Assembly: GCF_000768705.1 (NCBI RefSeq)
Contig: NZ_AVPJ01000006.1
Span: 124,001-188,000, forward strand
Length of the DNA: 64,000 nt
Source: Knoellia sinensis KCTC 19936
GTDB lineage: Bacteria > Actinomycetota > Actinomycetes > Actinomycetales > Dermatophilaceae
Reading direction: 5' to 3'
Shown: piece by piece, positions 1 through 64,000 of the stretch
Layout of the letters: every line of letters begins with the position of its first letter
Numbering within the stretch: position 1 is the stretch's first letter
Notes under the pieces: generated by a model
The model's input: only the letters and a program-made list of their open reading frames with translations
What the model was told of the DNA's origin: nothing
The model's database searches: none
Position numbers and translations under genes: made by a program

Positions 1-775
1 GGCGGCCGTCGGTGCCGTTGATGCTCGCCGTGGTGGGCGTGCGAGAGGTCATCGTGGCGTGCAGCAGACCGCGCCCACCTCTCGGTCCGGTGACGAGGAC
101 CGCCTCCTCGGCGTCGACCCCCTCGTCGGTGAGACGCCCCGTGGCGCTCACGGTCTCGATCCCACCGAGGGCGAAACTGGCCAGGGAGACCGGGTAGATC
201 CCGAGGTCGAGGAGGGCGCCGCCGGCCAGGGCAGGGTCGGAGAGTCGCTGCGGCCCATCGGGGTGAAGGGCCTGGCCGTGGTCGGCGAAGACGTTCTCGA
301 CCGTGCCGAGAAGTCCGTCCTCGAGGCACTGGCGGACGACGTCGATGCCGGGCAGGAACCGGGTCCACATGGCCTCCATGGCGAGGAGTCCCTTGGCGGA
401 GGCCGTGTGGAGGATGTCCTGAGCCTCGGTCGCGTTGCGCGCGAACGCCTTCTCGACGAGGACGTGCTTTCCGGAGTCGAGCGCCAGTCGGGCGTGGGCG
501 TGGTGCTCCGAGTGCGGGGAGGCGACGTAGACGATGTCGACGTCCGGATCTGCGACGAGCTCTTCGTACGAGCCGTATGCCGTGTGCGCGCCGAACTCGT
601 CCGCGAAGCCCTGCGCTCTGGTCAGGTCGCGGGACGCGACTGCGCGGATCACCTGGTCGGTCTCGGCACGGAGGGCGGATGCCATCTCACGAGCGATGTT
701 GCCCGGTCCCAGAATGCCCCAGCGCAGGACCGGGGCCGATCTGGGGTCAGGCGTGCGTGGTGTGGGCAGTTCCAT
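1..775 (-). CDS. Gfo/Idh/MocA family NAD(P)-dependent oxidoreductase, 3' end outside window
   Basis: Reading the minus strand from the ATG at 775 gives about 258 codons with no stop before the window edge, so the C-terminus is missing. Near the N-terminus is a Rossmann dinucleotide-binding motif, [11 protein letters not shown] (residues ~18-28). It is followed by [18 protein letters not shown] and the family's Lys motif [10 protein letters not shown], whose Lys is normally catalytic or substrate-binding. These are hallmarks of the Gfo/Idh/MocA fold (sugar, inositol or biliverdin-type dehydrogenases). The substrate cannot be told from sequence. An in-frame GTG at 781 is an alternative start, and no convincing Shine-Dalgarno precedes either. 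The gene diverges from uvrB with about 115 bp between starts. Confidence 0.88.
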
Positions 776-879
776 CGTCACCCGACCATCGTGGCACTTC
801 GGTGCCGACACGGCGGGGTGAGCGGACGGTATTCAGCCGGCCGGGTCGGCGCCATGGCACGGGTGTCGGTGGAACGGCA

Positions 880-885
880 TACCGT
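880..885 (+). promoter_or_regulatory. -10 element of a predicted leaderless uvrB promoter
   Basis: TACCGT fits the actinobacterial TANNNT -10 and ends exactly 6 nt before the uvrB ATG at 892, so transcription should begin at or next to the start codon. There is no Shine-Dalgarno. The hexamer is part of a GGCATACC motif copy (876-882). Inference from spacing only. Confidence 0.45.
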
Positions 886-891
886 TGTCGT

Positions 892-3009
892 ATGCGTCCC
901 ACCACCGACCTCAAGCGCACTGTCGCTCCGTTCAAGGTCGAGTCCGACTTCGAGCCCGCCGGCGACCAGCCCGCGGCGATCAAGGACCTGGCCGAGCGGA
1001 TCGACGCCGGCCAGCAGAACGTCGTGCTCCTGGGAGCCACCGGTACGGGCAAGTCGGCGACGACGGCGTGGCTCGTGGAGCGGGTCCAGCGCCCGACACT
1101 GGTGATCGCCCCCAACAAGACGCTCGCGGCACAGCTGGCCAACGAGTTCCGGGAACTGTTGCCGCACAACGCGGTGGAGTACTTCGTGAGCTACTACGAC
1201 TACTACCAGCCCGAGGCCTACGTCCCGCAGACCGACACCTACATCGAGAAGGACAGCTCGATCAATGACGAGGTCGAGCGGCTGCGGCACTCGGCCACCA
1301 ACTCGCTGCTGACTCGGCGGGACGTCATCGTCGTCGCGTCGGTGTCCTGCATCTATGGCCTCGGGACGCCGCAGGAGTACGTCGACCGGATGGTCGCACT
1401 GCGCGTGGGCGACGAGCTGGACCGTGACGACCTGTTGCGGCGGTTCGTCCAGATGCAATACACGCGCAATGACCTCGCGTTCACGCGTGGCACCTTCCGC
1501 GTGCGGGGCGACACGGTCGAGATCATCCCGATGTACGAAGAACTCGCCGTGCGGATCGAGTTCTTCGGCGACGAGGTCGACAAGATCTACACGCTCCACC
1601 CGCTCACCGGTGAGGTGGTCCGCGAGGAGCAGGAGATGTATGTGTTCCCGGCCTCCCACTATGTGGCAGGGCCGGAGCGCATGGAGCGCGCGATCGCCGG
1701 GATCGAGCACGAACTCGAGGAGCAGCTCCGGTCGTTCGAGGGGCAGGGCAAGATGCTCGAGGCCCAGCGGCTGAGGATGCGCACGACCTATGACATCGAG
1801 ATGATGCGCCAGGTCGGCTCCTGTTCGGGGATCGAGAACTACTCGATGCACCTCGACGGCCGTACGCCCGGATCGGCACCGAACTGCCTCCTCGACTACT
1901 TCCCCGAGGACTTCCTGCTGGTGCTGGACGAGTCGCACGTGACGGTGCCGCAGATCGGCGCCATGTATGAAGGCGACATGTCGCGCAAGCGGACCCTCGT
2001 CGACCACGGCTTCCGCCTCCCGTCGGCCATGGACAACCGCCCCCTGAAGTGGGAGGAGTTCCTCGACCGGATCGGGCAGACGGTCTATCTTTCCGCGACC
2101 CCGGGCAACTACGAACTCGCCCAGGCCGACGGCGTCGTGGAGCAGATCATCCGGCCGACCGGTCTCGTAGACCCAGAGATCGTCCTGAAGCCGACCAAGG
2201 GACAGATCGACGACCTGCTCCACGAGATCAACGAGCGCGCGGCCAAGGACGAGCGGGTCCTCGTGACGACCCTGACCAAGAAGATGGCCGAGGACCTCAC
2301 CGACTACCTGCTCGACAAGGGTGTGCGGGTGCGATACCTCCACTCCGACATCGACACGCTGCGCCGCGTGGAGTTGCTGCGTGAGCTGCGCATGGGCGAG
2401 TTCGACGTGCTGGTCGGTATCAACCTCCTGCGGGAGGGTCTCGACCTGCCCGAAGTGTCGCTCGTGTCGATCCTCGACGCCGACAAGGAAGGCTTCCTGC
2501 GATCGGCCCGGTCGCTCATCCAGACCATCGGGCGCGCGGCCCGCAACGTGTCGGGTCAGGTCCACATGTACGCCGACAAGATCACCCCGTCCATGGCCGA
2601 AGCCGTGGACGAGACATCGCGCCGCCGCGAGAAGCAGATTGCCTACAACGCCGAACGCGGCATCGATCCCCAGCCGCTGCGCAAGAAGATCGCCGACATC
2701 ACCGACATGCTCGAGCGCGAGGATGCCGACACCGAGGCGCTCCTGGGTTCGGGCCGGGCACGCTCGCGCGGCAAGGCGGACGGTGGTGGCCGAGGAGGCC
2801 GCGGCGCGTTGGCGGCCGACGCGGTCACGGTGGGTGCCGATCGACTTGGCGAGATGGCCGCCGGCGACCTGGCCAACCTCATCCAGGAGCTCACGACGCA
2901 GATGCACCAGGCGGCGGGTGACCTCCACTTCGAGTTGGCGGCACGGCTGCGCGACGAACTGGGCGACCTCAAGAAGGAACTGCGCCAGATGAGCGAGGCG
3001 ACGAAGTGA
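892..3009 (+). CDS. uvrB: UvrB, excinuclease ABC subunit B
   Basis: A 705-residue DNA helicase-like subunit of nucleotide excision repair. UvrA loads it at a lesion; it verifies the damage and recruits UvrC. Visible features are the Walker [12 protein letters not shown] (~residues 44-54), the beta-hairpin region [21 protein letters not shown], the Walker B-like DESH, SATPG (motif III), and late helicase motifs including [17 protein letters not shown] and [13 protein letters not shown] motif lies near the C-terminus ([20 protein letters not shown]). Length is normal for the family; a Gly/Arg-rich stretch ([16 protein letters not shown]) separates the helicase core from the UVR motif. The ATG at 892 gives the canonical N-terminus and sits 6 nt after a -10 box, so the mRNA is probably leaderless. 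uvrA and uvrC lie downstream in the window as separate units. Confidence 0.98.
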
Positions 3010-3028
3010 TGGGGTCGGTGGGCGCGCG

Positions 3029-3382: not shown

Positions 3383-4113
3383 GCAACGGACAGCTCGTCC
3401 AGGATCTCCAGCTGCCGGGACCATGCCGGCGACTCCGGATCGATGACGACGAAGTGGCCGCCCTCAACGAGCTCCACCGCAGCGTCGGCCCCTGCGGCTG
3501 TTGCACTTGCGATGTAGTCCGCTGACTGGCTGACGGGGACGGTGTCGTCTGCTCGGCCATGGACGCACCGCACGGGCACGTCGAGGGGAAGATGCTGGCG
3601 CGGGTCGAATGGTTCGTCCGCACTCGTGGGCGGGTGCCCGAGCAGGCGAACAACGGCGCCTGTGCCCAGATCGTCACGGGCTGCGCTCACGAGGTCGAGG
3701 ACACCTGCTTGTGACACGGCGCCAGTGACTCGCACGCGCGCATCGTCCCATCCGGCATACCGATGACGACCGGCCGACCACACCGCCAGGTGCCCTCCAG
3801 CGGAGTGTCCGAGAGCCAGCACGGTGGACGAGTCGAGGCCGTCAATGGCGGCCAGGGTGTCGAAGGCCGCGTGCACGTCGTCGAACGTCTCCGGCGCGCC
3901 ACCTCCATTGCCGACACGTCTGTACTCGATGTTCCACGCTGTCCAGCCGTGTTGGGCCAGCGAGGCGGCGAGGGGGCGGCCCAGCCCCAGGTCGTATTCG
4001 GCTTTCCAGAAGCCCCCGTGAATGACGACGACCACCCCCTTGCTCGGACCCACGGGGCGCGTCAGTTCGCCGAACTGGCTCGGGTCATCGCCATAGGCAA
4101 TCCGGAAGGTCAC
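3367..4113 (-). CDS. Alpha/beta hydrolase (esterase/lipase-like)
   Basis: A 248-residue protein with the alpha/beta-hydrolase order. An HGGFW oxyanion-hole motif lies near residue 33, the nucleophile elbow GHSAGG carries the catalytic Ser, and a late HGRADDTVPV segment carries the probable acidic residue, followed by VEGGHFVV with the catalytic His. HGGFW plus GHSAGGHLA is typical of the BD-FAE/kynurenine formamidase-like and carboxylesterase branch. The GTG at 4113 (MTFRIAYGDDPSQ) was chosen because the sequence further upstream in this frame is Arg/Pro-rich and runs through a long inverted repeat. No signal peptide, so cytoplasmic. The substrate is unknown. Confidence 0.85.
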   Translation of the reverse strand: MTFRIAYGDDPSQFGELTRPVGPSKGVVVVIHGGFWKAEYDLGLGRPLAASLAQHGWTAWNIEYRRVGNGGGAPETFDDVHAAFDTLAAIDGLDSSTVLALGHSAGGHLAVWSAGRHRYAGWDDARVRVTGAVSQAGVLDLVSAARDDLGTGAVVRLLGHPPTSADEPFDPRQHLPLDVPVRCVHGRADDTVPVSQSADYIASATAAGADAAVELVEGGHFVVIDPESPAWSRQLEILDELSVAHSGR

Positions 4114-4155
4114 GACCGGAGCGTATGCCGGCAGGCCGCCCAGTGGGTCCCGGGA

Positions 4156-4258: not shown

Positions 4259-4296
4259 GACTCAGGATGGCGAGCCGACGGCATACGTCGCTCCGT

Positions 4297-4341: not shown

Positions 4342-4343
4342 AG

Positions 4344-4441: not shown

Positions 4442-4517
4442 GGCCCTGACCCCAACCCTCGGAAGGTTGTCCGCGTTGCTCACCCTCTCCACCGCGCTGC
4501 CTGCGGCGACGGAATCC

Positions 4518-5552: not shown

Positions 5553-5581
5553 GCCACCCGGCATACGCCGCTTGAACGCGT

Positions 5582-6454
5582 CTAGGACCCCGTCGATTCG
5601 GCGGGGTCCTTGCGGGCTCCGAGGCCGAGGACGATGGCGGACGCGAGCACGACGAGGGTCATCCCAACCAACTGGACGCCGCTGAGCGTCTGGCTGAGGA
5701 TGATCAGCCCGGCAAGCGCCGCGACGGCCGGCTCGAGGCTGAGCAGGATGCCGAACACCTGGGCACTGAGTCGACGGAGAGCCACGAGCTCGAGCGAGTA
5801 GGGCAACACCGACGACAGCACGGCGATGCCCAAGCCCTTGGCTAGCGTCTCGCTGGTCCAGTCCGGCACGGAGGCCAGCCCGAAGGGCAACGTCACGATG
5901 GTCGCGACGATCATGGCGAGCGCCAGTCCTTCGAGCTTGTCGAATTCCGCTCCGGTCCGCCCGCTGAAGATGATGTATGCCGCCCAGCACGCTCCCGCAG
6001 TGGCCGCCAGTCCCAGCCCGGTCCAGTTCAGGTCGGCGAACGGGATGGAGAGTGCCTCGGAGATGAGCAGGACGCCCGCCGCTGCAGCCACGACGGCGAG
6101 GAGGTCGACGAGCCTGCGCGACAACGATGCTGCGAGGAGCAACGGGCCGAGGAACTCGACGGTCACGGCGACACCGATGGGCAGGTGGGCGAGTGAACCG
6201 TAGAACGTGAAGTTCATGAGGCCGAGGGCGAGGCCGAAGCCGATGACGGTGAGCCAGGCCTTGCGGGAGTGTCCGCGGAACCGCGGGCGTGCGATGGCGA
6301 CGAGGATGACGGTCGCAAAGAGGAGCCGCATCACCACGGACCCGCCGGCCCCGATCTCGGGCACGAGGGTTGCGGCGAGCGCGCCCCCGAACTGGACCGA
6401 GAGGATCCCGGCAAGAACCAGCAGAGGGGCGGGGACGGACTCGAGACGCGACAC
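5582..6454 (-). CDS. EamA/DMT superfamily exporter (RhtA-like)
   Basis: About 290 residues with ten hydrophobic segments arranged as two five-helix EamA repeats; VTVEFLGPLLLA lies in the first and LPYSLELVALRRL plus SLEPAVAALAGL in the second. This pattern resembles RhtA-type amino acid exporters (threonine/homoserine) of the drug/metabolite transporter superfamily, but the substrate is not determinable. Two consecutive GTG codons (6457 and 6454) could start it. A TAGCCT -10 box lies exactly 6 nt before the second, so 6454 is preferred as a leaderless start. The C-terminus overlaps the terC terminator hairpin. Confidence 0.88.
   Translation of the reverse strand: MSRLESVPAPLLVLAGILSVQFGGALAATLVPEIGAGGSVVMRLLFATVILVAIARPRFRGHSRKAWLTVIGFGLALGLMNFTFYGSLAHLPIGVAVTVEFLGPLLLAASLSRRLVDLLAVVAAAAGVLLISEALSIPFADLNWTGLGLAATAGACWAAYIIFSGRTGAEFDKLEGLALAMIVATIVTLPFGLASVPDWTSETLAKGLGIAVLSSVLPYSLELVALRRLSAQVFGILLSLEPAVAALAGLIILSQTLSGVQLVGMTLVVLASAIVLGLGARKDPAESTGS
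5584..5610. terminator. Hairpin between terC and the convergent exporter gene
   Basis: AGGACCCCG (5584-5592) pairs with CGGGGTCCT (5602-5610) around a 9-nt loop, 31 nt after the terC stop. On the minus strand it lies inside the last codons of the EamA gene. No long U tract follows, which is usual for actinobacterial terminators. Confidence 0.5.
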
Positions 6455-6530: not shown

Positions 6531-7334
6531 ATGAGCAATATCGCGGTCGACCTGCACGAGGCACGTGAGAACGATCCGTCGACGCAGCGTGCTGTCACAG
6601 CCTTCACCAGCGCCATGCGCATCCTGTGGAGCGCCTTCCCCGACGGCGCCTGGCGCGACTCCGCCGATCTCGTCCGCTATGACACCGAGCAGCCCACGCC
6701 GAGGTTCAACGGGGTCGTCGTTCTCGGACCTGAGGCGGACGAAGAGTCAGCCTCACAGTGGCTGGACGCGCTGGCTGGACGCGGTTTGCCCTACTGCATC
6801 CTCAGCCGCCCATCGGCCCCGGAGTGGGTTGCCGGACTCGCCTCGCGACACCACCTGGATCGGGTGGAGCACGAACCGTTCATGATCCACTCCTCGCCGG
6901 CTGAGGTCGTCGTGCCCCAGGGGACCGTGATCTCGCGCGTCGACCCGGAGGACGCGGGGGAGGTGGCCCTGGCGCAGCAGCTGTTCGCGGACGGCTTCGA
7001 GGGCCCGGTCGAGGTCCTGGGCTCACTCATGACGGCGGAGGTCCTGCGGCTGCCCGAGATGGAGGCCTATGTCGGACGGGCCGACGGTCAGCCGTGCACC
7101 ACGGGCTTCGGGACACTGACCGATGGACACGTCGGTGTGTTCAACATCGCCACTCCTCCCGCCTATCGCACGCGCGGCCACGGGCACGCCATCACGGCGG
7201 CGGTCATGGCTGCGGGTGCAGCGGCAGGTGCGCACACGGCATACCTGCAGGCATCCGAGATGGGGTACCCGATCTACGAACGGATGGGGTTCCGCGCCGT
7301 CGAGCTGTGGCCGAGCTACTACCCCGCCGAGTGA
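6531..7334 (+). CDS. GNAT family N-acetyltransferase
   Basis: A 267-residue protein. The C-terminal half carries the GNAT acetyl-CoA fold: PPAYRTRGHGHAITAAVM matches the pyrophosphate-binding motif (R/Q-x-x-G-x-G/A), and ASEMGYPIYERMGFR matches the final beta-strand/helix motif. The N-terminal half is probably a degenerate second GNAT-like domain or substrate domain. Substrate unknown. The ATG at 6531 was chosen; upstream there is no overlapping reading frame and only a weak GGCAGGA-like ribosome-binding region. It is flanked by genes on the opposite strand, so it is monocistronic. Confidence 0.85.
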   Translation: MSNIAVDLHEARENDPSTQRAVTAFTSAMRILWSAFPDGAWRDSADLVRYDTEQPTPRFNGVVVLGPEADEESASQWLDALAGRGLPYCILSRPSAPEWVAGLASRHHLDRVEHEPFMIHSSPAEVVVPQGTVISRVDPEDAGEVALAQQLFADGFEGPVEVLGSLMTAEVLRLPEMEAYVGRADGQPCTTGFGTLTDGHVGVFNIATPPAYRTRGHGHAITAAVMAAGAAAGAHTAYLQASEMGYPIYERMGFRAVELWPSYYPAE

Positions 7335-8017: not shown

Positions 8018-8701
8018 TCAGAGCCCCGCCGTGAGCTCGGGGATCGCGTCGCCCCGGACACCGGACGAGTCCTGCCTGGCCAACCAGAGGAGTATGCCGG
8101 CCCGCGAGCCGGTCACGTCGCGGTCAGCGGTGCCCAGGGGCCAGGCATCTCCCTCGTCGCTGCGGATCGTGACCGACAACGGTGTGGGACCGCCTTGCTG
8201 CCGCTTGATCTCGTTCTCGATGAAGAGGAGTTGGAGGTCGGCAGCCAGGTCGTCGAACCCGAATCCTGTGTCGAGGTCGACGTGGTGATAGACCACCTCT
8301 CGCAGGCGCATGAAGGTCAGCATGCCTCCCTTGAACGTTGGCCCGCCCGGGGTGCGCTCGAGGACGATGTCCGCGTGGGCGGGCGTGAGCCGACGCAGGT
8401 CTTGGGCCAAGGGGACGGAGGTTGCCTCGACCTCATCGACGACGGTCCCGCCCGGCCGGCCCACACCGGCGTTGATGTCCTCGTCACGGCCCTCCGGCGA
8501 GGCATACATCGTCTCGCCTGTCCCGTCCACGGCCGATCCGACAAGTCGCGACATCGCCTCGGCGTTCCGCGCGATGTGGTTGAGGACATGGTCGCGGCTC
8601 CACCCCTCGCACAGGCTCGGCGCCGAGAGGTCATCGACGGCCCTGGCATCCGCAACGAGGAGGCCGGTCTGTTGATCGATGGCGGCGAGAAGGTCGGTCA
8701 C
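8018..8701 (-). CDS. Maleylpyruvate isomerase family mycothiol-dependent enzyme
   Basis: A 227-residue protein. The N-terminal DinB-like four-helix domain contains SLCEGWSRDHVLNHIARNAEA (~residues 29-49), where the His residues of this family coordinate a divalent metal. Later come LREVVYHHVDLDTGF and a C-terminal region resembling the MDMPI-C domain. The family includes mycothiol-dependent maleylpyruvate isomerase and mycothiol S-transferases; the actual reaction is unknown. A TAGCCT -10 box sits exactly 6 nt before the GTG start, implying a leaderless message. The downstream MBL hydrolase follows at 2 nt. Confidence 0.88.
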   Translation of the reverse strand: MTDLLAAIDQQTGLLVADARAVDDLSAPSLCEGWSRDHVLNHIARNAEAMSRLVGSAVDGTGETMYASPEGRDEDINAGVGRPGGTVVDEVEATSVPLAQDLRRLTPAHADIVLERTPGGPTFKGGMLTFMRLREVVYHHVDLDTGFGFDDLAADLQLLFIENEIKRQQGGPTPLSVTIRSDEGDAWPLGTADRDVTGSRAGILLWLARQDSSGVRGDAIPELTAGL

Positions 8702-8705: not shown

Positions 8706-9845
8706 TCAGGCTACGCGTGCTCGCCAGAGCGTGCCTGCTCCCGCGTCGTCCGTGGTGACGACCCACAGTTCATCCCCGTGGGCGACGGCCGACACGGGCA
8801 TGCCGGTCGGACCCCGGCCCCGCTGCCATGCGTCACCGTCGCGGAACAGGACTGCCGAGGATCGATCCTGGGGGACCACGAGGATCTCGGACCCCGCGGG
8901 TCCGACGGGGGCGAGTACGCGCGCGTTCTCGTCGACACGAACAGCCGGTATGCCGGACAGCTCACCTGGCGATTCGCCACCCGCCTGCCACACCGACAGG
9001 CGCCCGTCGGTGACTCCTGTGAGGAGGCACTCCGTGTGACAGGTCGCGGCGTGCACCTCCGAAGTCCCGGCGCCGCCCGTCCGCGGGAGGTCCACGCGAG
9101 TCCACGGTCCCGTCGGTCCGGGGGAGAGCCAGACGGCCGGGGAGACCGTCACGGCGCCGGGATCGAGGTGGGTGACCGATCCCGTGAGCACTAGTCCCGT
9201 GCCGTGGGACGCGATGGCGGTTGCGCTGAGGAGTTCGTCGGCGGTGCTTCCCAAAGGGGTGCCGGTGGAGGGTAGACGCGCCCACCGGTCGCCAGACCGA
9301 CTCCAGGTGGCGATGTCCTGTCCGGTGGACTCGCTCTGCCAGGCGCCGAGAATGACAGGCGACCCACCGGCATACGCGACGCCCGCAAGGTCACCCGCGC
9401 CGTAGCTGCCGAAAACCCCGAACGGCTGTTCCTGCTCCGCGACGCTCGCCCCTGAGCCGGTCCACGTCGACCACCGGTAGTTCCCGTGAGCGCCGCCGCG
9501 GGCGCCACCGATCGCGTCGATGCGGTCCTCGTGCGTGGCGATCTGGAACCACCGGGCCTCGTAGGCGTAGGGCGACCCGGGGGAGAGGGGAATCTGCGTG
9601 AGCGATTCGGGGTCCGGACCCTTGAGGAGGCGTGGTCGCGTCCGGCCGGCCCCCACTGCCCCGACGATGACGTCCTCAGGCGTGGACGCCAAGGTCACTG
9701 CCGACACGCCCTCGGGGAGGGCGACGCGTTCCCAGGTGATGGTGCGTTCGGTCGGCGAGGGCGAGGCGGGGTCGGGGGAGGTGCAGCCACTGATCGCCAA
9801 GGCAGACGTGACGACGAGCGCCACCGTGGCTGATCGCAGGATCAC
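8706..9845 (-). CDS. Lipoprotein of unknown function
   Basis: From the GTG at 9845 it encodes 379 residues with a lipoprotein signal peptide: a short basic start, hydrophobic VALVVTSALA, then the lipobox AISGC with the lipidated Cys near residue 20. The mature part is Pro/Ser-rich at first and then built of repeated beta-strand-like segments (WSTWTG, ATWSRSG, AVWLSPG, LSVWQAG, ILVVPQ, LWVVTTDD). This is suggestive of a beta-propeller/WD-like extracytoplasmic fold, but I recognise no named family. Three Cys residues are visible, including the pair in ATCHTECLLTG. A TAGGCT -10 box lies 7 nt before the GTG. It diverges from uvrA. Confidence 0.75.
   Translation of the reverse strand: MILRSATVALVVTSALAISGCTSPDPASPSPTERTITWERVALPEGVSAVTLASTPEDVIVGAVGAGRTRPRLLKGPDPESLTQIPLSPGSPYAYEARWFQIATHEDRIDAIGGARGGAHGNYRWSTWTGSGASVAEQEQPFGVFGSYGAGDLAGVAYAGGSPVILGAWQSESTGQDIATWSRSGDRWARLPSTGTPLGSTADELLSATAIASHGTGLVLTGSVTHLDPGAVTVSPAVWLSPGPTGPWTRVDLPRTGGAGTSEVHAATCHTECLLTGVTDGRLSVWQAGGESPGELSGIPAVRVDENARVLAPVGPAGSEILVVPQDRSSAVLFRDGDAWQRGRGPTGMPVSAVAHGDELWVVTTDDAGAGTLWRARVA
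8708..8713 (-). promoter_or_regulatory. -10 element of a predicted leaderless promoter (isomerase-MBL pair)
   Basis: TAGCCT on the minus strand, 6 nt (GAGGCC) before the GTG at 8701. It lies inside the 3' end of the upstream lipoprotein gene, whose stop is at 8706, so the pair can be transcribed separately from it. Confidence 0.45.
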
Positions 9846-13174: not shown

Positions 13175-13888
13175 TCAGTCCTCGCCGAGGTATGCCTTGC
13201 GGACCTCGTCGCTCTCAAGGAGCTCCGGACCGGTGCCCGAGAGCACGATCTTGCCCACCTCGAGGACATAGCCCTTGGTGGCGCGCTTGAGGGCGGCCTG
13301 GGCGTTCTGCTCGACGAGGAGGATCGTCGTGCCCTGCTCCTGCAAGGTCGTGACGGTCGACATGACGGTCTTCATCATGAGCGGTGACAGACCCATCGAC
13401 GGCTCGTCGAGCATGAGCAGCTTGGGCCGGCTCATCATCGCCCGACCCATGGCGAGCATCTGCTGCTCGCCACCGGAGAAGGTGCCGGCTGCCTGCGACT
13501 TGCGCTCCCCGAGGATCGGGAAGAGGTCGTAGGCCGCCTGCAAGTCCTTCTTGACGTCACCATCACGCCGGGCGAAGGCCCCGAGCAGGAGGTTCTGCTC
13601 GACCGTGAGGCGAGGGAAGATCCGCCGCCCCTCGGGGGAGTGGGCCAGGCCCAGCGACACGATGTCGTGCGCCGCGACGCTGTCGATGCGCTTGCCCTGG
13701 AAGCGGATCGAGCCGCTCGCCGGACGAAGCAAACCGGAGATCGTGCGCAGCGTCGTGGTCTTGCCCGCACCGTTCGTGCCGATCAGGGTGACGACTTCGC
13801 CCTCATCGACGCTGAAGCTGATGCCCTTGACGGCCTTGATCTGGCCGTAGGCGACGACGAGGTTCTTGACCTCGAGCATGGCGCTCAC
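13175..13888 (-). CDS. livF: LivF, branched-chain amino acid ABC transporter ATP-binding protein
   Basis: A 237-residue ABC ATPase: Walker A GTNGAGKTT (~residues 37-45), signature FSGGEQQMLA, Walker B LLMLDEPSMGLSP and switch His/VEQNAQ. The HSPEGRRIFPRLTVEQNL and EPSMGLSP segments are diagnostic of LivF in HAAT transporters. It is the last gene of livK-H-M-G-F. Its ATG overlaps the livG stop by 4 nt (ATGA), indicating translational coupling. It hydrolyses ATP on the cytoplasmic face to drive uptake of Leu/Ile/Val or related substrates (urea and amides are alternatives for this family). Confidence 0.95.
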   Translation of the reverse strand: MSAMLEVKNLVVAYGQIKAVKGISFSVDEGEVVTLIGTNGAGKTTTLRTISGLLRPASGSIRFQGKRIDSVAAHDIVSLGLAHSPEGRRIFPRLTVEQNLLLGAFARRDGDVKKDLQAAYDLFPILGERKSQAAGTFSGGEQQMLAMGRAMMSRPKLLMLDEPSMGLSPLMMKTVMSTVTTLQEQGTTILLVEQNAQAALKRATKGYVLEVGKIVLSGTGPELLESDEVRKAYLGED

Positions 13889-19521: not shown

Positions 19522-19522
19522 G

Positions 19523-19563
19523 CACACGGCATACGGGCGATTCTTTCGTTCGTATGCCGTGTG
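19523..19563 (+). terminator. Terminator hairpin built from an inverted pair of the GGCATAC motif
   Basis: CACACGGCATACG (19523-19535) pairs perfectly with CGTATGCCGTGTG (19551-19563), loop 15 nt. It begins 1 nt after the Rieske stop and ends before the uvrC -10 box. Each arm carries one copy of the window-wide octamer CGGCATAC. Confidence 0.8.
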
Positions 19564-47203: not shown

Positions 47204-48388
47204 ATGAGCCTTCTGGCAGATAAGACTCAGCAGACCCAGTCCGTTTCTCAGGGCTCCCACACCGATTCCGCCGCTGCGTTCGTCCCGGACCAGTCCCGCG
47301 CGGAGCGGACGACCTCGTATGCCGTGTCGGACTTCCCGGTCCCGTCCGGTCGCGAGGAGGAGTGGCGTTTCACCCCCGTCGACCGTCTCCAGGCGCTCTT
47401 CGCCGAAACGTCCGGGACGCCGCTGCGCCGTGAGGAGTCCCTTCCCGAGGGCGTGACCGTCTCGACGCTGAGCAAGGACGAGTGGCAGGGGAGCGGCGCG
47501 CCGAAGCCCGCAGACCGCGCCGCCGTGATCGCCGCAGCCCAGGCCGAGGCAATCACCGTCCTCGACGTCCCGGCCGAGGCCGAGCTCACCGAGCCGGTCC
47601 GTCTCGTCCTCACGGGTGAGGGAGCACTGGCTCACGGCCACACGCTGGTGCGGGTCGGCAACTTCGCCAAGGCGACGATCGTCCTGCGCCACGAGGGCGA
47701 CGCCCAGTACTCCGAACTCCTCACGGTCGTGGCGGGGGACGGTTCCGATGTCACCGTCGTGACGGTGCAGGAATGGGCCGACAGCGCCCTCCACCTCGGC
47801 CAGCACGACGTCGTCGTGGGCCGGGACGCCAAGGTCCGGCACATCGCCGTCACCCTCGGTGGTGGGATCGTCCGCCTCAACACCAACGCGTCCTACGCCG
47901 GTCCCGGCGGCTCCTTCGAAGGCCTCGGCGTCTACTTCGCCGATGCCGGTCAGCACCAGGAGCACCGCCTCTTCGTCGACCACGAGGCGCCCCACTGCCA
48001 CTCCAATGTCGAGTACAAGGGCGCCCTCCAGGGCGAGACCGCGCACACCGTGTGGGTGGGCGACGTCCTCATCCGGGCAGCCGCCGAGGGCACCGACACC
48101 TACGAGCTCAACCGCAACCTCATCCTCACCGACGGGGCCCGCGCCGACTCCGTGCCCAACCTCGAGATCGAGACCGGCGAGATCGCCGGTGCTGGGCACG
48201 CTTCTGCGACAGGGCGATTCGACGACCAGCAGTTGTTCTACCTGCAGGCTCGTGGGATCGACGAGGACACCGCCCGTCGTCTTGTCGTGCGCGGCTTCTT
48301 CGCCTCGATCGTCGGCCGGATCGGTGTGCCCGAGGTCGAGGAGCACCTCATGGAGGCGATCGACCGCGAGTTGGAGGCGACCGCATGA
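47204..48388 (+). CDS. sufD: SufD, Fe-S cluster assembly subunit
   Basis: 394 residues, SufB-like beta-helix. GREEEWRFTPVDRLQALF is the SufD N-terminal WRxT motif, and DHEAPHCHSNVEYKGALQG plus QQLFYLQARGIDEDTARRLVVRGFF are typical late motifs, the latter holding the His/Asp residues of the SufB-SufD interface. Cytoplasmic partner of SufB and SufC. The ATG begins at the nucleotide after the sufB stop; the stop overlaps the next ATG by 4 nt. Confidence 0.97.
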   Translation: MSLLADKTQQTQSVSQGSHTDSAAAFVPDQSRAERTTSYAVSDFPVPSGREEEWRFTPVDRLQALFAETSGTPLRREESLPEGVTVSTLSKDEWQGSGAPKPADRAAVIAAAQAEAITVLDVPAEAELTEPVRLVLTGEGALAHGHTLVRVGNFAKATIVLRHEGDAQYSELLTVVAGDGSDVTVVTVQEWADSALHLGQHDVVVGRDAKVRHIAVTLGGGIVRLNTNASYAGPGGSFEGLGVYFADAGQHQEHRLFVDHEAPHCHSNVEYKGALQGETAHTVWVGDVLIRAAAEGTDTYELNRNLILTDGARADSVPNLEIETGEIAGAGHASATGRFDDQQLFYLQARGIDEDTARRLVVRGFFASIVGRIGVPEVEEHLMEAIDRELEATA

Positions 48389-48744: not shown

Positions 48745-50832
<2,088 letters not shown>

Positions 50833-51641: not shown

Positions 51642-52175
51642 ATGAGCCGCACGGCCCGTCTTGTTGAAGTCGCGCCCGAGCGGTATGCCGCGTGGCGCGA
51701 GCGCTTCGACGCCGCCAATCCCGACGGCCCCCAGCGGGTCGTCGGGATCTCGCGTTTCGACGACCCCCACCTCGCCGTCGTGCTCATCAGGCGCGGCGGG
51801 TATGCCGTCGCGCACGTTCACGAGTCGTCTCTCGTCGCGCACAAGGTCGGGACCCGTCACGTCCAGTCGCGCACGGCCGCCGGGGGGTGGTCGCAACAGC
51901 GGTTCGCCCGTCGCCGCGGCAATCAGGCCGACGAACTCGTTCGAGCGGTTGCGGAGCACACCACGAGAATCGTGCCGGACGGCATACCGACTGCTCTGGT
52001 CGTCGGTGGGGACAAGTCACTGGTGAGGGACGTGCTCAGCGACCCGCGTCTGTCGTGGCTGGGGGAGTTGCCGCGCCGGGAGTTCCATGACATCGGTGAC
52101 CCGCGCCGGGCCGTGCTCGACGAGGTCGTGCGGCGCGCGCGAGCCGTGCAGGTCGCCATCGACGACGGCCCGTGA
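51642..52175 (+). CDS. acVLRF1 family peptidyl-tRNA hydrolase (ribosome rescue)
   Basis: 177 residues. AAGGWSQQRFARRRGNQADELV (described by residues ~80-100) matches the VLRF1 catalytic segment GG-x-S-x-QxF-x-R-R-x-x-Q, related to Vms1/ANKZF1. The family's conserved Gln is in SQQRF. VLRF1/eRF1-like proteins are thought to release nascent chains from stalled or split ribosomes; the actinobacterial clade is named acVLRF1. It begins 10 nt after sufT, so it may be the tail of the suf message, but no functional link is known. Three GGCATAC-type motifs lie in this short gene (51683, 51800, 51981). Confidence 0.8.
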   Translation: MSRTARLVEVAPERYAAWRERFDAANPDGPQRVVGISRFDDPHLAVVLIRRGGYAVAHVHESSLVAHKVGTRHVQSRTAAGGWSQQRFARRRGNQADELVRAVAEHTTRIVPDGIPTALVVGGDKSLVRDVLSDPRLSWLGELPRREFHDIGDPRRAVLDEVVRRARAVQVAIDDGP

Positions 52176-56889: not shown

Positions 56890-58772
56890 GCATGGCCGGA
56901 TGGCAGGCGATGCAGAGTCTGAGCAAGGACTCCAGTGTCAAGACCAAGGACCTGGCACCGGGGACGGCTCGCCGAGTGCTGACGTATGCCCGCCCCTATC
57001 GAGGGATCATCACCGGATTCCTCACCCTCGTGGTGATCGACGCCATGCTGATCGTCGCGACGCCGCTGCTGCTCAAGAGCCTCATCGACGACGGGATCTA
57101 TCCCCAGGACAGGGGCGTCGTGATCCGGCTGTCACTGATGGTCGCCGGTATCGCCGTGGTCAGCGCCCTGGTGACCCTGGTGTCACGATGGCTGTCGTCT
57201 CGCATCGGTGAGGGTCTCATCGTCGACCTCCGGACCCAGGTCTTCTCCCATGTGCTGCGTCAGCCGATCGCCTTCTTCACTCGCGCGCAGACCGGGGCGC
57301 TGGTGTCGCGCCTCAACAGTGACGTCATCGGAGCCCAGCAGGCGTTCACCTCCGTTCTGTCGAGCGTCGTGAGCAACGCTGTCTCCCTCGTGCTCATTAT
57401 CGGCGCCATGCTCGTCCTTTCCTGGCAGCTCACCCTCGCCTCGCTCATCCTCGTCCCGCTCTTCCTCCTCCCGGCCCGCACGATGGGCGGTCGGCTCGCG
57501 TCTCTTGCGCATGATCAGATGGGTCTCAATGCCGACCTTGGCACTCGGATGACGGAGCGCTTCAACGTTGCCGGCGCCCTGCTCGTCAAGATCTACGGCA
57601 ACCCGGAGGTCGAGAACAGCGAGTATGCCCAGCGAGCCACGAGGGTCCGGGACATCGGCGTCCGGATCGCCGTCAACCGATCCATCTTCTTCGTCGGGCT
57701 CACCCTCGTCGCGGCGTTGGCTACCGCCCTGGTCTATGGCTTCGGTGGTGTCATGGCGGTCGAGGGTGCCCTGTCGGTCGGGACGTTGATCGCGCTCACA
57801 GCTCTCCTGGCCCGGCTCTACGGCCCCCTCACGACCATCTCCAACGCTCGGGTCGACGTCATGACCGCGCTCGTCTCCTTCGAGCGGGTCTTCGAGATCA
57901 TCGACCTCGAGCCACTCGTCGCGGAGGCACCCGACGCAACGCCCATCCCGGCCGGCCCGGTGCGGGTGGACCTCGACCACGTGGGCTTCGCCTACCCGTC
58001 GGCCGACGCCATCTCCCTGAGTTCGCTCGAGTCCTCGGCCACAGGTGATCGGTCCGCGGGCGACACGGTCCTGGAGGACATCGACGCGACCATCGAGCCG
58101 GGGCAGTTGGTCGCTCTCGTCGGACCCAGCGGTGCTGGCAAATCCACTCTCACCTCACTCGTCGCGCGCCTCTACGATCCCACCAGCGGAGCTGTTCGTC
58201 TCAATGGCTCCGATCTGCGCACCGTCACCCTCGAGTCGCTGCGCGACACCGTCAGCGTGGTGACCCAGGAAGCCCACTTGTTCCACGACACGATTCGGGC
58301 GAACCTCCTGTATGCCGCGCCCGCGGCCACCGAGGCCGAGATGGAGGCTGCACTGCGCGCCGCTCGTGTGTGGGACCTCGTGGACCGACTTCCGGCGGGT
58401 CTGGACACCGTCGTCGGTGATCGGGGCCATCGCCTCAGTGGGGGAGAGAAGCAACGGATCGCCATCGCGCGGCTGCTGCTCAAGGGCCCTCGCCTCGTCG
58501 TTCTCGACGAGGCGACCGCACACCTCGACAGTGAGAGCGAGGTGGCCGTCCAGCGAGCCCTGGATGCCGCTCTCGCGGGTCGCACGGCGCTTGTCATCGC
58601 GCACCGCCTTTCGACGGTCCGACACGCCGACGTCATCCTCGTCCTTGATGGCGGTCGCATCGTGGAGCGTGGCACGCACGCCGAACTGTTGGCCTCCGGA
58701 GGGCTCTACTCCGACCTCTACACAACACAGTTCGCCGAAGGCCCGACCGTCTCGGTCAGGTCCGGGACCTGA
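56886..58772 (+). CDS. ABC exporter, fused permease-ATPase (multidrug/lipid type)
   Basis: 628 residues. The N-terminal ~330 residues hold six transmembrane helices of the ABC_membrane type (GIITGFLTLVVIDAMLIVA, VVIRLSLMVAGIAVVSALV and on). The ATPase has Walker A VGPSGAGKST, VVTQEAHLFHDTIRANLLYA (Q-loop), signature RLSGGEKQRIAIARLLL, Walker B LVVLDEATAHLD, and switch IAHRLSTV. This is a half-transporter that dimerises; no partner gene is adjacent, so it is probably a homodimer. Substrate unknown. The start ATG at 56886 overlaps the stop of a 16-codon leader ORF; no strong own Shine-Dalgarno. Confidence 0.93.
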   Translation: MSMAGWQAMQSLSKDSSVKTKDLAPGTARRVLTYARPYRGIITGFLTLVVIDAMLIVATPLLLKSLIDDGIYPQDRGVVIRLSLMVAGIAVVSALVTLVSRWLSSRIGEGLIVDLRTQVFSHVLRQPIAFFTRAQTGALVSRLNSDVIGAQQAFTSVLSSVVSNAVSLVLIIGAMLVLSWQLTLASLILVPLFLLPARTMGGRLASLAHDQMGLNADLGTRMTERFNVAGALLVKIYGNPEVENSEYAQRATRVRDIGVRIAVNRSIFFVGLTLVAALATALVYGFGGVMAVEGALSVGTLIALTALLARLYGPLTTISNARVDVMTALVSFERVFEIIDLEPLVAEAPDATPIPAGPVRVDLDHVGFAYPSADAISLSSLESSATGDRSAGDTVLEDIDATIEPGQLVALVGPSGAGKSTLTSLVARLYDPTSGAVRLNGSDLRTVTLESLRDTVSVVTQEAHLFHDTIRANLLYAAPAATEAEMEAALRAARVWDLVDRLPAGLDTVVGDRGHRLSGGEKQRIAIARLLLKGPRLVVLDEATAHLDSESEVAVQRALDAALAGRTALVIAHRLSTVRHADVILVLDGGRIVERGTHAELLASGGLYSDLYTTQFAEGPTVSVRSGT

Positions 58773-59657: not shown

Positions 59658-60443
59658 CTAGAAGTCCTCCTCGTCCCAGATGCGCACCTTCTTGGGCTTC
59701 GCGGGACGGTCAGGATCGGCTTCGCGCTGCTCACGGCGCAGCCCGAGCCAGATGAGGATGAGGCCCACGGGCATCGAGAGCCACCACTGGAAGGCGTAGG
59801 CCTGGTGCGGCCCCAGACTGCGGTCGGGCTCCGCGAGCCGTTCCGGTCGAGGAGGCGTGGAGCCATCGGGGAGTCGTTCGGCGTCGAGAGTGACATAACC
59901 GTTCAGCAGTTCTCGGTCCCAGGCGCGCTCGAGGTCGGGAAGGGCGATGCTCGCCACCTGCCCTGCCGGGAGGGACTTGTCCTGGGTGCTCTCCAGTGGA
60001 CGTACCCACCCCACCACCGTGACGTCCCCCTCGGGTGGCGGAGCCACTTCAGGGACAACCGCGGCCCCGCGGTCCGAGTTTGCGACCCAGCCGCGGTCGA
60101 CCACCACGGTCTGCCCGTCCGCGAGTTCGAGGGGTGCCAGCACCTCGTATCCGAAGACACTGTGGTTCGGTCGGTTGCGCACGAGCACCTGTGGTCCGGC
60201 ATACCGACCCGTCGTCGTCACACGCGTCCAGTCGTCCGACCCGCGGTCCACTGGACGGTCGGTGAGGATGCTGGTCGCCGGCACGGGGTCCGCGCGGTAG
60301 TGCGCGTCGAGCAGGGCGTTGCGCTCCACCTTGAACTCGTGGCGGCCGTACTGCCAGTGGCCCAACTGGTAGGCCGCGAAGGCAAAGACGATGGAGAGTG
60401 CGAGAGCGCCCAGCCAACGCGGGGTGAGCAGACGCCGTAACAC
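59658..60443 (-). CDS. SURF1 family cytochrome oxidase assembly protein
   Basis: About 261 residues. Two transmembrane helices, near the N-terminus ([21 protein letters not shown]) and the C-terminus ([21 protein letters not shown]), flank an external domain. The SURF1 motifs are the N-terminal [41 protein letters not shown] and the C-terminal [12 protein letters not shown]1 assists heme a insertion into cytochrome c oxidase, matching ctaA/ctaB elsewhere in the window. Start choice: GTG 60443 is 7 nt after a TACCGT -10 box; ATG 60464 would add seven residues but leaves only 11 bp to the divergent moaA start. Confidence 0.9.
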
Positions 60444-60456: not shown

Positions 60457-60463
60457 CCCGGCA

Positions 60464-60469
60464 TACGCT
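60464..60469 (+). promoter_or_regulatory. -10 element of a predicted leaderless moaA promoter
   Basis: TACGCT ends 6 nt before the moaA ATG at 60476. It is part of a CGGCATACGCT motif copy. Confidence 0.45.
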
Positions 60470-61494: not shown

Positions 61495-62804
<1,310 letters not shown>

Positions 62805-62851
62805 CACTTCCCATTACATCCCGCGTCACCACTCGAAGGAGAACGACCCCG

Positions 62852-63610
62852 ATGCTGCTCGAGGGCAAGAAACTGCTCATCACGGGAGTCCTCATGGACT
62901 CCTCGATCGCCTTTCACGTTGCCAAGCTGGCGCAGGAGCAGGGGGCCGAGGTCGTGCTCACCTCCTTCGGCCGCACCATGAAGATCACGTCGACGATCGC
63001 GAAGCGGCTGCCGTCCACGCCACCCGTGGTCGAGCTCGACGTCACGGACACGGAGCACTTGGCCAGCCTCGCCGAGCGCCTCGGCGAACACGTCGACCAT
63101 CTCGATGGGGTCCTGCACTCCATCGGCTTCGCCCCGCAGGGTGCCTTCAACTTCCTCGAAGGCACCTTCGAGGACGTCTCGACAGCGATGCACGCATCGG
63201 CGTACTCGCTCAAGTCCCTGGCCGTGGCGGCGCTCCCGCTGATGAGTCCTGGAGCATCGGTGGTCGGGCTGACGTTCGACGCCAAGTTCGCCTGGCCCGT
63301 CTACGACTGGATGGGCGTTGCCAAGGCAGCCTTCGAGTCCACCAACCGCTACCTCGCACGCGACCTGGGGCCGAAGGGCGTGCGGTGCAACCTCGTGGCG
63401 GCCGGGCCGATCAGGACGACCGCGGCGAAGTCGATCCCGGGCTTCCAGACCTTCGAGGATTCCTGGGGCGAACGTGCACCCCTGGGTTGGGACGTGAACG
63501 ACGCAGTCCCCGCCGCAAAGGCATGTGCCGCGTTGCTGTCCGACTGGTTCCCCGCGACGACGGGCGAGATTGTCCACGTCGACGGCGGCGTACACGCGAT
63601 GGGCTTCTGA
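62852..63610 (+). CDS. fabI: Enoyl-ACP reductase (FabI/InhA type)
   Basis: 252 residues. LLEGKKLLITGVLMDSSIAFHVA is the InhA-like start with the divergent Gly-rich motif of enoyl reductases, and YDWMGVAKAAFESTNRYLARDLG carries the Tyr-x6-Lys. GVHAMGF forms the end. The NADH-dependent last step of fatty acid elongation and the isoniazid/triclosan target class. The ATG has CGAAGGAGA upstream. It is closer to mycobacterial InhA than to E. coli FabI; this alone does not imply mycolic acids. Confidence 0.95.
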   Translation: MLLEGKKLLITGVLMDSSIAFHVAKLAQEQGAEVVLTSFGRTMKITSTIAKRLPSTPPVVELDVTDTEHLASLAERLGEHVDHLDGVLHSIGFAPQGAFNFLEGTFEDVSTAMHASAYSLKSLAVAALPLMSPGASVVGLTFDAKFAWPVYDWMGVAKAAFESTNRYLARDLGPKGVRCNLVAAGPIRTTAAKSIPGFQTFEDSWGERAPLGWDVNDAVPAAKACAALLSDWFPATTGEIVHVDGGVHAMGF

Positions 63611-63626
63611 GCCCGTCTCGACGAAC

Positions 63627-63632
63627 TAGGCT
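63627..63632 (+). promoter_or_regulatory. -10 element of a predicted leaderless promoter
   Basis: TAGGCT ends 6 nt before the GTG at 63639. Confidence 0.45.
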
Positions 63633-63638
63633 CGGCGA

Positions 63639-64000
63639 GTGACCAGCGACACCCGCGCCCGCCCTGCCGTGACCGCCACGGAGGTCCGCGTCCTCGAAGG
63701 GCCGAACCTCTACTTCCCGAAGCCGGCCGTCAAGGTCACCCTGGACCTCACGGCATACCTCGACGCCGACAAGGACGAGGTCCGTCGTGTCGCCCGGACA
63801 GCCGGGCTCGGTGCCATCCAAGCAGGAGGGCCGGGCACTGAACAGCGGCAGCGAGTGCTCGCCCGCCTGGCCGAGAGGGCAGTGCGCCACGTCTCGCGAG
63901 GATCAGGAACGAAGAGACTTGGCGTGCGGGCGCGCCCCGGCTCCGAGCGCTCCGTCGTCGTCGTGTCCTTCGTGTGGCGGCGCAGAGGATCCGCACAGGC
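63639..64000 (+). CDS. N-terminal part of a probable Mur-ligase/cyanophycin synthetase-like protein
   Basis: About 120 codons from the GTG at 63639, running off the window. EVRVLEGPNLYFPKPAVKVTLDL resembles the N-terminus of cyanophycin synthetase-like Mur ligases (xRVLxGPNxxxxxP), and the 3' part presumably carries the ATP-grasp/Mur domains. No ATP-binding motif is reached, so the identification is tentative. The start is set by the -10 box 6 nt upstream; a GGCATAC motif lies at 63752. Confidence 0.5.
   Translation, partial: MTSDTRARPAVTATEVRVLEGPNLYFPKPAVKVTLDLTAYLDADKDEVRRVARTAGLGAIQAGGPGTEQRQRVLARLAERAVRHVSRGSGTKRLGVRARPGSERSVVVVSFVWRRRGSAQ

What the first reader, a model, noticed from the sequence alone, without database searches (positions are those of the whole stretch)
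1..64000. Strongly over-represented octamer CGGCATAC/GTATGCCG: candidate genome-wide DNA signal
By eye I find about 39 copies of GGCATAC/GTATGCC (21 on plus, 18 on minus), and about 34 of these extend to CGGCATAC/GTATGCCG. At ~70% GC a 7-mer with four G/C and three A/T should occur about 6-7 times on both strands, and the octamer about twice. Plus copies: 876, 3754, 4280, 5560, 7238, 8501, 9369, 18943, 19528, 21339, 27188, 30893, 41493, 43782, 45585, 50752, 51981, 60198, 60460, 62673, 63752. Minus copies: 575, 4123, 5975, 8092, 8948, 13190, 19552, 26163, 33906, 37603, 38986, 45443, 47318, 51683, 51800, 56984, 57623, 58310. Copies occur in at least three codon frames, so protein sequence does not explain them. 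Possible roles: uptake sequence, Chi-like site, nucleoid-protein or methylation site.
Basis: seen in the sequence. Interest (0 to 1): 0.75.

Follow-up and report, generated by a model that had tools for sequence, protein, structure and literature searches.

The report
Uptake-sequence-like DNA word in actinobacteria
This genome carries one 8-letter DNA word about 2,500 times, kept nearly unchanged between species and swapped for other words in related lineages, a pattern best known from bacteria that use such words to take up mainly their own kind's DNA.

Summary
In detail: 39 GGCATAC and 34 CGGCATAC in the window. Genome-wide there are 2,485 CGGCATAC, against 68 for the reversed control. That is one per 1.6 kb, 15-62 times Markov expectation with copies masked.

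Orientation is balanced. Density is 3.5 times higher outside genes. Close pairs are inverted in 15 of 15 cases, none in a divergent gap. Inside genes the word overrides codon preference. Alignable sites are 77-91% conserved in five congeners, against 28-32% for same-composition 8-mers.

Among genomes sampled, enrichment is confined to one family, patchily. Relatives use the dialects CGGCATCC or CGTCATAC; two genera, one probably Janibacter, use the unrelated CGAAGGGGG and lack CGGCATAC.

This matches the DNA uptake sequences (DUS/USS) of Neisseriaceae and Pasteurellaceae. The genome has comEA, comEC and Tad/Flp genes. Uptake is untested and no receptor was found. Unexplained: same-orientation copies avoid each other within 1 kb in CGGCATAC genomes. 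Chi/KOPS-like polarity is excluded; a methylation-linked motif (HIP1-like) is the main rival.

The parts
575..582 (-). CGGCATAC copy
875..882 (+). CGGCATAC copy, outside called genes
3753..3760 (+). CGGCATAC copy
4123..4130 (-). CGGCATAC copy, outside called genes
4279..4286 (+). CGGCATAC copy, outside called genes
5559..5566 (+). CGGCATAC copy, outside called genes
5975..5982 (-). CGGCATAC copy
7237..7244 (+). CGGCATAC copy
8092..8099 (-). CGGCATAC copy
8948..8955 (-). CGGCATAC copy
9368..9375 (+). CGGCATAC copy
18942..18949 (+). CGGCATAC copy, outside called genes
19527..19534 (+). CGGCATAC copy, left arm of the hairpin, outside called genes
19552..19559 (-). CGGCATAC copy, right arm of the hairpin, outside called genes
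19523..19563 (.). terminator-like hairpin built from an inverted pair of the motif; its first motif copy starts 5 bp after the end of the called gene 19084-19521
   Evidence: position; -37 kcal/mol for 19515-19572, z -8.0, 0 of 200 shuffles as stable
21338..21345 (+). CGGCATAC copy
26163..26170 (-). CGGCATAC copy
27187..27194 (+). CGGCATAC copy
30892..30899 (+). CGGCATAC copy
33906..33913 (-). CGGCATAC copy
37603..37610 (-). CGGCATAC copy
38986..38993 (-). CGGCATAC copy, outside called genes
41492..41499 (+). CGGCATAC copy
43781..43788 (+). CGGCATAC copy
45443..45450 (-). CGGCATAC copy
47317..47324 (-). CGGCATAC copy
50751..50758 (+). CGGCATAC copy
51683..51690 (-). CGGCATAC copy
51800..51807 (-). 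CGGCATAC copy
51980..51987 (+). CGGCATAC copy
58310..58317 (-). CGGCATAC copy
60197..60204 (+). CGGCATAC copy
60459..60466 (+). CGGCATAC copy, across a gene edge (counted as outside genes)
62672..62679 (+). CGGCATAC copy
63751..63758 (+). CGGCATAC copy
8501..8507 (+). GGCATAC only (no C before it); probably background: the three non-C forms together are 20 against about 13 expected in 464 kb
13190..13196 (-). GGCATAC only, probably background
45585..45591 (+). GGCATAC only, probably background
56984..56990 (-). GGCATAC only, probably background
57623..57629 (-). GGCATAC only, probably background

Best explanation
CGGCATAC is most likely the DNA uptake sequence of a naturally transformable actinobacterium. 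A surface receptor of the competence machinery, probably a minor pilin or another protein of the Tad/Flp pilus, would bind double-stranded DNA that carries the octamer. ComEA and ComEC would then bring one strand in, and recombination of mostly own-species DNA would keep replanting and preserving the word across the genome. Related lineages changed the receptor's preference, giving the dialects CGGCATCC and CGTCATAC and, in the Janibacter-like lineage, replacement by an unrelated word, CGAAGGGGG. Shown here: the abundance, sharpness, conservation, placement, hairpins beside gene ends, family-limited distribution, the dialects, and the presence of comEA, comEC and tad genes. Inferred: uptake, the receptor, and the drive or selection that maintains the copies.
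For: 2,485 copies, one per 1.6 kb, close to the DUS spacing of about 1,150-1,500 and USS spacing of about 1,000 bp in print (passages of PMC2397512 and PMC7811141). Sharp: the motif has 252 copies against 8.3 at order 2; among single-mismatch forms the highest count is 80 against 48.4 and the highest ratio 2.8 (16 against 5.7). Balanced orientation. Density 1.49 per kb outside and 0.43 per kb inside genes. 15 of 15 pairs closer than 61 bp are inverted: 13 lie between genes, one straddles gene edges and one is inside a gene; of the first 14, 5 are in convergent, 9 in tandem and 0 in divergent gaps (68 of 250 gaps are divergent); 4 of 4 folded are strong hairpins. Frye 2013 describes such pairs for DUS (passages of PMC3630211). 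Rare codons are used where they complete the word: GCA 60 of 106 against 9 of 185 elsewhere; TAT 87 of 108 against 43 of 147. Conservation 15/19 to 21/23 alignable sites in five congeners against 28-32% in controls; mismatch 3.3% inside and 20.3% outside. Dialects: CGGCATCC 3,816-4,480 copies in 4 of 152 genomes; CGTCATAC 1,622-1,966 in 5 of 5 g14 genomes; CGAAGGGGG 797-1,939 in 16 of 16 g27 and g35 genomes and 11-80 in the other 136, with its own inverted hairpins. Own genome: ComEA with SLBB and HHH, ComEC, and a tadA-tadB-tadC-flp-TadE cluster. In Micrococcus luteus comEA, comEC and tad clusters are needed for transformation (passages of PMC8467076).
Against: No uptake experiment for these species appeared in anything I saw. 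ComEC (151 of 152 genomes) and the main tad cluster are also present in genomes without the word, so machinery and motif do not co-vary and no receptor is identified. The excess outside genes is not seen everywhere: CGGCATCC in G034+G017 is 1.29 against 1.21 per kb and CGGCATAC in G029 0.52 against 0.47. Published work on H. influenzae finds uptake indifferent to USS orientation (passages of PMC1939737), whereas here same-orientation copies avoid each other within 1 kb (20 of 92 pairs in the own genome, 79 of 243 in other genera); the uptake model does not predict this, and the same test shows nothing for CGGCATCC (54 of 120) or CGAAGGGGG (17 of 36). Cyanobacterial HIP1 also shows lineage-specific replacement words, tied to methyltransferases (passages of PMC4390886), so dialects alone do not prove uptake.
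Confidence: 0.7

Rival explanations
1. A methylation-linked word like cyanobacterial HIP1: a methyltransferase marks CGGCATAC and a methylation-dependent repair or strand-discrimination process creates and maintains copies; each orientation would mark one strand.
For: HIP1 is abundant and in some lineages replaced by alternate words together with a matching methyltransferase (passages of PMC4390886). A strand-specific signal would explain why same-orientation copies avoid each other within about 1 kb while opposite ones do not.
Against: HIP1 is a palindrome; this word is not. Its one-base deviations are biased to its ends; here single-mismatch forms are near background at all positions. Enrichment outside genes and use in hairpins at gene ends is the DUS/USS pattern. 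Methylation could not be tested.
Confidence: 0.15
2. A chromosome-organising or nucleoid-protein site spread over the chromosome.
For: Genome-wide presence in both orientations and strong conservation.
Against: Dialects and complete word replacement between close genera are not expected of a core chromosome protein; spacing is near random overall (SD 1,916, mean 1,844); preference for positions just after stop codons as hairpins.
Confidence: 0.07
3. A Chi-like recombination site or KOPS-like FtsK orienting site.
For: Octamer length, abundance, non-palindromic.
Against: Orientation balanced, 98:91 and 32:31 on two stretches, whereas GGGGGAG in the same stretches is 4:126 and 44:0, which is what a polar site looks like.
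Confidence: 0.02
4. The word is only the stem of a favourite terminator or a small mobile hairpin.
For: 13 fully intergenic inverted pairs in 464 kb, each with a stop codon within 5-40 bp.
Against: 177 of 252 copies are inside genes, only 30 of 252 are in close pairs, and contexts are all different.
Confidence: 0.02
5. Sequencing-adapter contamination or a codon or composition artefact (the octamer also occurs in the Illumina P7 adapter).
For: The octamer is part of the adapter primer printed in an abstract listed.
Against: 252 of 252 sites have different contexts; the longer adapter piece GAAGACGGCATAC has 0 copies in 464 kb and ACGGCATACGAGAT 2. Copies are conserved at orthologous places in other species; rare, not common, codons are used.
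Confidence: 0.01

Closest known systems
DNA uptake sequence (DUS) of Neisseriaceae, read by the minor pilin ComP
   Same: Thousands of copies, spacing of 1-1.5 kb, conserved core, many intergenic inverted pairs as terminators, dialects that follow the phylogeny (passages of PMC3630211, PMC2397512, PMC5031613)
   Different: Unrelated sequence, high-GC Gram-positive host, Tad/Flp genes instead of a type IVa pilus (PilM in 6 of 152 genomes only), no known receptor, full replacement by an unrelated word in one lineage, orientation-dependent avoidance
Uptake signal sequence (USS) of Pasteurellaceae
   Same: 9-bp core, about 1,000 bp spacing, no chromosome orientation bias, -/+ and +/- hairpin pairs usually at gene ends (passages of PMC7811141, PMC1939737, PMC5031613); weak flank preferences here too, T at +15
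   Different: Sequence unrelated; the AT tracts of the USS (PMC7811141) are only hinted at here; uptake shown there, not here
HIP1 of cyanobacteria
   Same: Very abundant octamer with lineage-specific replacement words (passages of PMC4390886)
   Different: HIP1 is palindromic and tied to methyltransferases; this word is asymmetric and intergenic-rich, methylation untested
Chi and KOPS sites
   Same: Short, asymmetric, abundant (recalled)
   Different: They are polar along the chromosome (recalled); this word is not
Micrococcus luteus natural transformation (comEA, comEC, tad-1, tad-2)
   Same: Same kind of machinery genes; in two relatives scanned the main tad cluster lies beside an FtsK/SpoIIIE gene, as tad-1 does (passages of PMC8467076)
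   Different: A find query for 'uptake sequence' in PMC8467076 returned 0 occurrences; 271 genomes sampled from the 16 other families of the order are not enriched in CGGCATAC; the own genome has a GAF/Fis-type regulator, not FtsK, beside tadA

Membership tests
DNA uptake sequences (DUS/USS) | Hundreds to thousands of copies of one short word, far above chance | tested here: met
DNA uptake sequences (DUS/USS) | No orientation bias along the chromosome | tested here: met
   (two stretches, 464 kb)
DNA uptake sequences (DUS/USS) | Excess outside genes and inverted pairs shaped like terminators | tested here: met
   for the own genome; no excess outside genes for CGGCATCC in G034+G017 nor CGGCATAC in G029; termination itself not measured
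DNA uptake sequences (DUS/USS) | Strong conservation at orthologous sites and lineage-specific dialects | tested here: met
DNA uptake sequences (DUS/USS) | Competence machinery in the genome | tested here: met
   but also present without the word
DNA uptake sequences (DUS/USS) | The word increases uptake or transformation | not testable with these tools
   needs an uptake assay
DNA uptake sequences (DUS/USS) | A cognate receptor such as ComP | tested here: inconclusive
   no gene examined tracks the word; whole proteomes were not compared
Chi / KOPS | Polar orientation relative to replication | tested here: not met
HIP-type methylation-linked words | Palindromic word | tested here: not met
   CGGCATAC and its complement GTATGCCG differ
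HIP-type methylation-linked words | Matching methyltransferase and methylation of the word | not tested
   no methylome data; methyltransferase genes were not surveyed

The most novel reading that the evidence does not exclude
A self-DNA recognition code in high-GC Gram-positive bacteria that evolved independently of DUS and USS. It is read by a Tad/Flp-pilus competence system, has point-mutation dialects and one complete change of word (CGGCATAC to CGAAGGGGG) within a single family, and in CGGCATAC genomes acts in an orientation-dependent way over about 1 kb, so that each strand needs its own copies.
Probability: 0.5. Interest if true: 0.93.

Novelty: new variant of a known kind. Interest (0 to 1): 0.85.

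Why it matters
A 2016 review names two families, Neisseriaceae and Pasteurellaceae, as having sequence-specific DNA uptake (passage of PMC5031613), and my searches listed no Gram-positive case. A third, independent origin in a large Gram-positive family, with several words and switches on a tree, would let one ask how such codes start, change and die. It also suggests a practical route to transform soil and wastewater actinobacteria: add the right octamer to the DNA.

Tried and rejected
Rejected: Chi/KOPS (balanced orientation); terminator-only element (177 of 252 copies in genes); adapter contamination; protein or codon cause; type IVa pilus as machine (PilM in 6 of 152 genomes). Presence of comEC or of the main tad cluster does not separate genomes with and without the word. 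Of 10 loci checked for the cluster's pilins 7 held tadC, and 5 of these (L094, L105, L111, L163, L165) had weak, distant or no pilin matches; this does not track the word either, since L094 is from a CGGCATCC genome and L165 has 5 CGGCATAC in 21 kb. The other three (L098, L106, L114) turned out not to hold this cluster.

De novo 8-mer searches gave no comparable word in 11 pooled samples from other families (20-96 kb each; the strongest is the palindrome ATCGCGAT, 16 against 1.1 in 95 kb). Within the family no convincing word stood out in twelve genomes with few or no CGGCATAC (G160, G083, G038, G184, G022, G001, G011, G019, G021, G068, G095, G004; 40-80 kb each). Weaker words in G082 (CCGCATCG, 54 against 13.4) and in G014, G089 and G015 (CGTACGCC, CGGCGTAC) were not resolved.

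Literature: word searches for actinobacterial uptake sequences, the family and competence and uptake sequences in general listed nothing on such a signal in Actinobacteria. The search for the octamer itself found 2,606 papers, of which 20 were listed; those I saw hold it in primers or read sequences, so an earlier mention could be hidden. The library lacks most subscription papers. Papers were seen as listings, abstracts or find passages only; none was read whole.


Full report
OBSERVATION. It is the most over-represented 8-mer of the window under an order-3 model (34 against 1.94). The whole genome (3,987,063 bases) has 1,234 forward and 1,251 reverse copies, against 33 and 35 for the reversed pattern. 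In 464 kb of this genome (plus the window) there are 252 copies; with the motif masked, expectation at Markov orders 0 to 5 is 4.1 to 17.2. Unmasked models of order 4 and 5 expect 46.5 and 148.7 because they are trained on the motif.

THE WORD. The core is C-G-G-C-A-T-A-C: 93% of 272 GGCATAC sites have the leading C. Single-mismatch forms stay near an order-2 expectation (the highest count is 80 against 48.4, the highest ratio 2.8, 16 against 5.7), while the motif has 252 against 8.3. Weak flank preferences recur in three classes of sites pooled over 17 genomes (226 outside genes, 180 and 301 in the two main coding frames): a purine at -1, C or G at -2 and -5, and T at +15 (36%, 37% and 31% against 16% background); T at +18 shows in two of the three. 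In the coding classes part of this may be codon position. All 252 sites have different 28-bp contexts, so this is not a repeat family.

PLACEMENT. Of 252 copies 177 are in genes called by my own codon-based caller and 75 outside: 0.43 and 1.49 per kb. The gene caller is simple and was not checked against an annotation. Inside genes two frames dominate, reading xCG-GCA-TAC (Ala-Tyr) and, on the other strand, TAT-GCC (Tyr-Ala). There GCA makes up 60 of 106 Ala codons against 9 of 185 in other Ala-TAC contexts, and TAT 87 of 108 Tyr codons against 43 of 147. Copies closer than 61 bp are inverted in 15 of 15 cases: 13 pairs lie between genes, each with a stop codon within 5-40 bp, one straddles two gene edges and one is inside a gene. 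Of the first 14, 5 are in convergent, 9 in tandem and none in divergent gaps, although 68 of 250 gaps of at least 20 bp are divergent; the chance of none is 0.012. Four of these hairpins were folded, at -37 to -42 kcal/mol with z from -6.7 to -10.7. The window's own example is 19527-19559. The excess outside genes also holds for CGGCATAC pooled from G141, G164 and G039 (2.29 against 0.77 per kb) and CGGCATCC in G178 (1.38 against 0.67), but not for CGGCATCC in G034+G017 (1.29 against 1.21) or CGGCATAC in G029 (0.52 against 0.47).

POLARITY. CGGCATAC is 98 plus and 91 minus on a 340-kb stretch and 32 and 31 on 124 kb. In the same DNA GGGGGAG is 4:126 and 44:0, so a polar site would have been seen.

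CONSERVATION. The window and its flanks (124 kb, 63 sites) were aligned to 60 kb from each of five congeners, at 83-84% identity. Of own sites with an aligned counterpart 20/25, 20/24, 15/19, 17/22 and 21/23 are unchanged, against 28-32% of non-overlapping 8-mers of the same composition (3,738-4,157 each). Mismatch is 3.3% in the 8 bp and 20.3% in the flanks, with sharp edges. In another genus (G141) 12 of 16 are kept, control 20%; in a CGAAGGGGG genome (G053) 0 of 11, control 16%.

DISTRIBUTION. Of 186 genomes of the family 106 have at least 400 copies (404 to 4,724), 15 have 120-399 and 65 fewer than 120 (recounted). In both g18 genomes and three of five g4 genomes the reversed control is itself raised (ratio 2.5-3.1), perhaps because the right flank often extends to CATACGGC (8 against 0.5 in G041). 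Outside the family, 0 of 271 genomes of the order reach 200 copies and 0 of 195 genomes of the phylum reach 400 (the maximum, 386 against 176, is in a 7.5-Mb genome; 5 genomes are in both samples). Named loci rich in the word come from Pedococcus, Phycicoccus sp., Terrabacter, Tetrasphaera, Ornithinimicrobium, Serinicoccus and Flexivirga; Janibacter limosus, Phycicoccus endophyticus, Cellulomonas and Geodermatophilaceae loci have none and Frankia-like loci 0 or 1 (the best 80 loci of a capped list, 3-21 kb each). The family is therefore probably GTDB Dermatophilaceae (recalled name); the genus of the window was not determined.

DIALECTS. De novo counts in 20-80 kb per genome led to whole-genome counts in 152 genomes. 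CGGCATCC: 3,949 (G178), 4,480 (G034), 3,816 and 3,838 (G017, G018); the next are 1,336, 1,239 and 1,210, and the rest 241-1,040, so its background is high. CGTCATAC: 1,622-1,966 in 5 of 5 g14 genomes, which also carry 1,734-2,542 CGGCATAC, and 1,557 in G167; smaller excess in g4, g36, g40, g49 and others. CGAAGGGGG: 13 of 13 g27 genomes (797-1,860) and 3 of 3 g35 genomes (1,317-1,939), and 11-80 in the other 136; these 16 genomes have 7-41 CGGCATAC. Outside the family no genome of the order exceeds 101 copies (182 such genomes of 198). Janibacter and Marihabitans loci carry CGAAGGGG, so g27 is probably Janibacter. CGAAGGGG has the same anatomy: 1.89 against 0.46 per kb in G053+G064 (5 close inverted pairs) and 1.41 against 0.68 in G092 (3 pairs). 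On a FastTree of concatenated TadABC (51 taxa, no support values inspected; labels of named taxa rest on their one locus) the CGAAGGGGG clade sits inside the CGGCATAC species, as do G178 with Humibacillus (CGGCATCC) and several losses, such as G083 beside G085.

MACHINERY. The own genome has ComEA (SLBB and helix-hairpin-helix), ComEC, and a tad cluster with T2SSE, T2SSF, a short flp-like gene without a Pfam hit, one clear TadE protein and two weaker TadE/Tad-like ones. In two relatives scanned, a large gene beside this cluster is FtsK/SpoIIIE with FHA; genes of similar size sit there in many others, while the own genome has a GAF/Fis-type regulator in that place. The tad-1 cluster of M. luteus also lies beside an FtsK/SpoIIIE gene implicated in transformation (passages of PMC8467076). 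ComEC is in 151 of 152 genomes, T2SSF in 38 of 38 chosen, and the tad cluster also in genomes without the word. So the machinery is background, not evidence of specificity, and the receptor is unknown.

AN UNEXPLAINED FEATURE. Pairs of copies 61-999 bp apart are in the same orientation in only 20 of 92 cases in the own genome (label shuffles: 45.7 +/- 4.8, 0 of 2,000 as low), 34 of 103 in congeners (not independent of the first) and 79 of 243 in twelve genomes of other genera (118.2 +/- 7.3, 0 of 2,000). Beyond 2 kb the effect is gone. The lowest of 203 control 8-mers has 30%. The same test shows nothing for CGGCATCC (54 of 120) or CGAAGGGGG (17 of 36, few pairs). A simpler test on nearest neighbours beyond 60 bp gives opposite against same 160:75 in the own genome, 369:216 in the other CGGCATAC genomes, 85:37 with CGGCATCC and 67:59 with CGAAGGGG, so for CGGCATCC the two tests disagree. 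Same-orientation copies seem redundant, opposite ones not, as if each orientation served one strand or one direction over about 1 kb. Published USS work finds orientation irrelevant to uptake (PMC1939737), so this is either new or a hint at a different function.

VERDICT. By anatomy, evolution and genomic context this works like a DNA uptake sequence; membership is not claimed because uptake and receptor are untested. Confidence 0.7. The main rival is a methylation-linked word like HIP1 (0.15).

Noticed in passing
G000 contig C1:1-340000 and C59:84001-208000 (window included): GGGGGAG (and CGGGGGAG) is almost absolutely polar: 4 plus and 126 minus on C1, 44 plus and 0 minus on C59. A candidate Chi or FtsK-orienting site; mostly polar in G078 too (30:4 in six stretches, 0:5 in a seventh).
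   Followed up: partly
G000, 464 kb sample: A second word, ACTTTGTG/CACAAAGT with GGCACAAA, is about 8-14 times over expectation (17-20 copies); not explained.
   Followed up: no
L163 (Nostocoides sp. F2B08): CTGGTACAC-like 8-mers stand out (10-12 copies against 0.4-0.8 in 21 kb): another word or a local repeat.
   Followed up: no
G178 loci L057, L058, L093, L094: TTCCAGAA, TGGAACAA, GTTCCAGA and AACAACTG are each 14-17 copies against under 1 expected, probably a longer local repeat.
   Followed up: no
Illumina P7 adapter: CGGCATAC is part of the adapter; k-mer surveys that filter adapters could hide or mimic this word.
   Followed up: yes
G113 (genus g41): The only genome of its genus at background for the word (50 copies); its ComEC match covers only positions 1-150 of 270. 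Possibly a decayed system, or a contig end.
   Followed up: no
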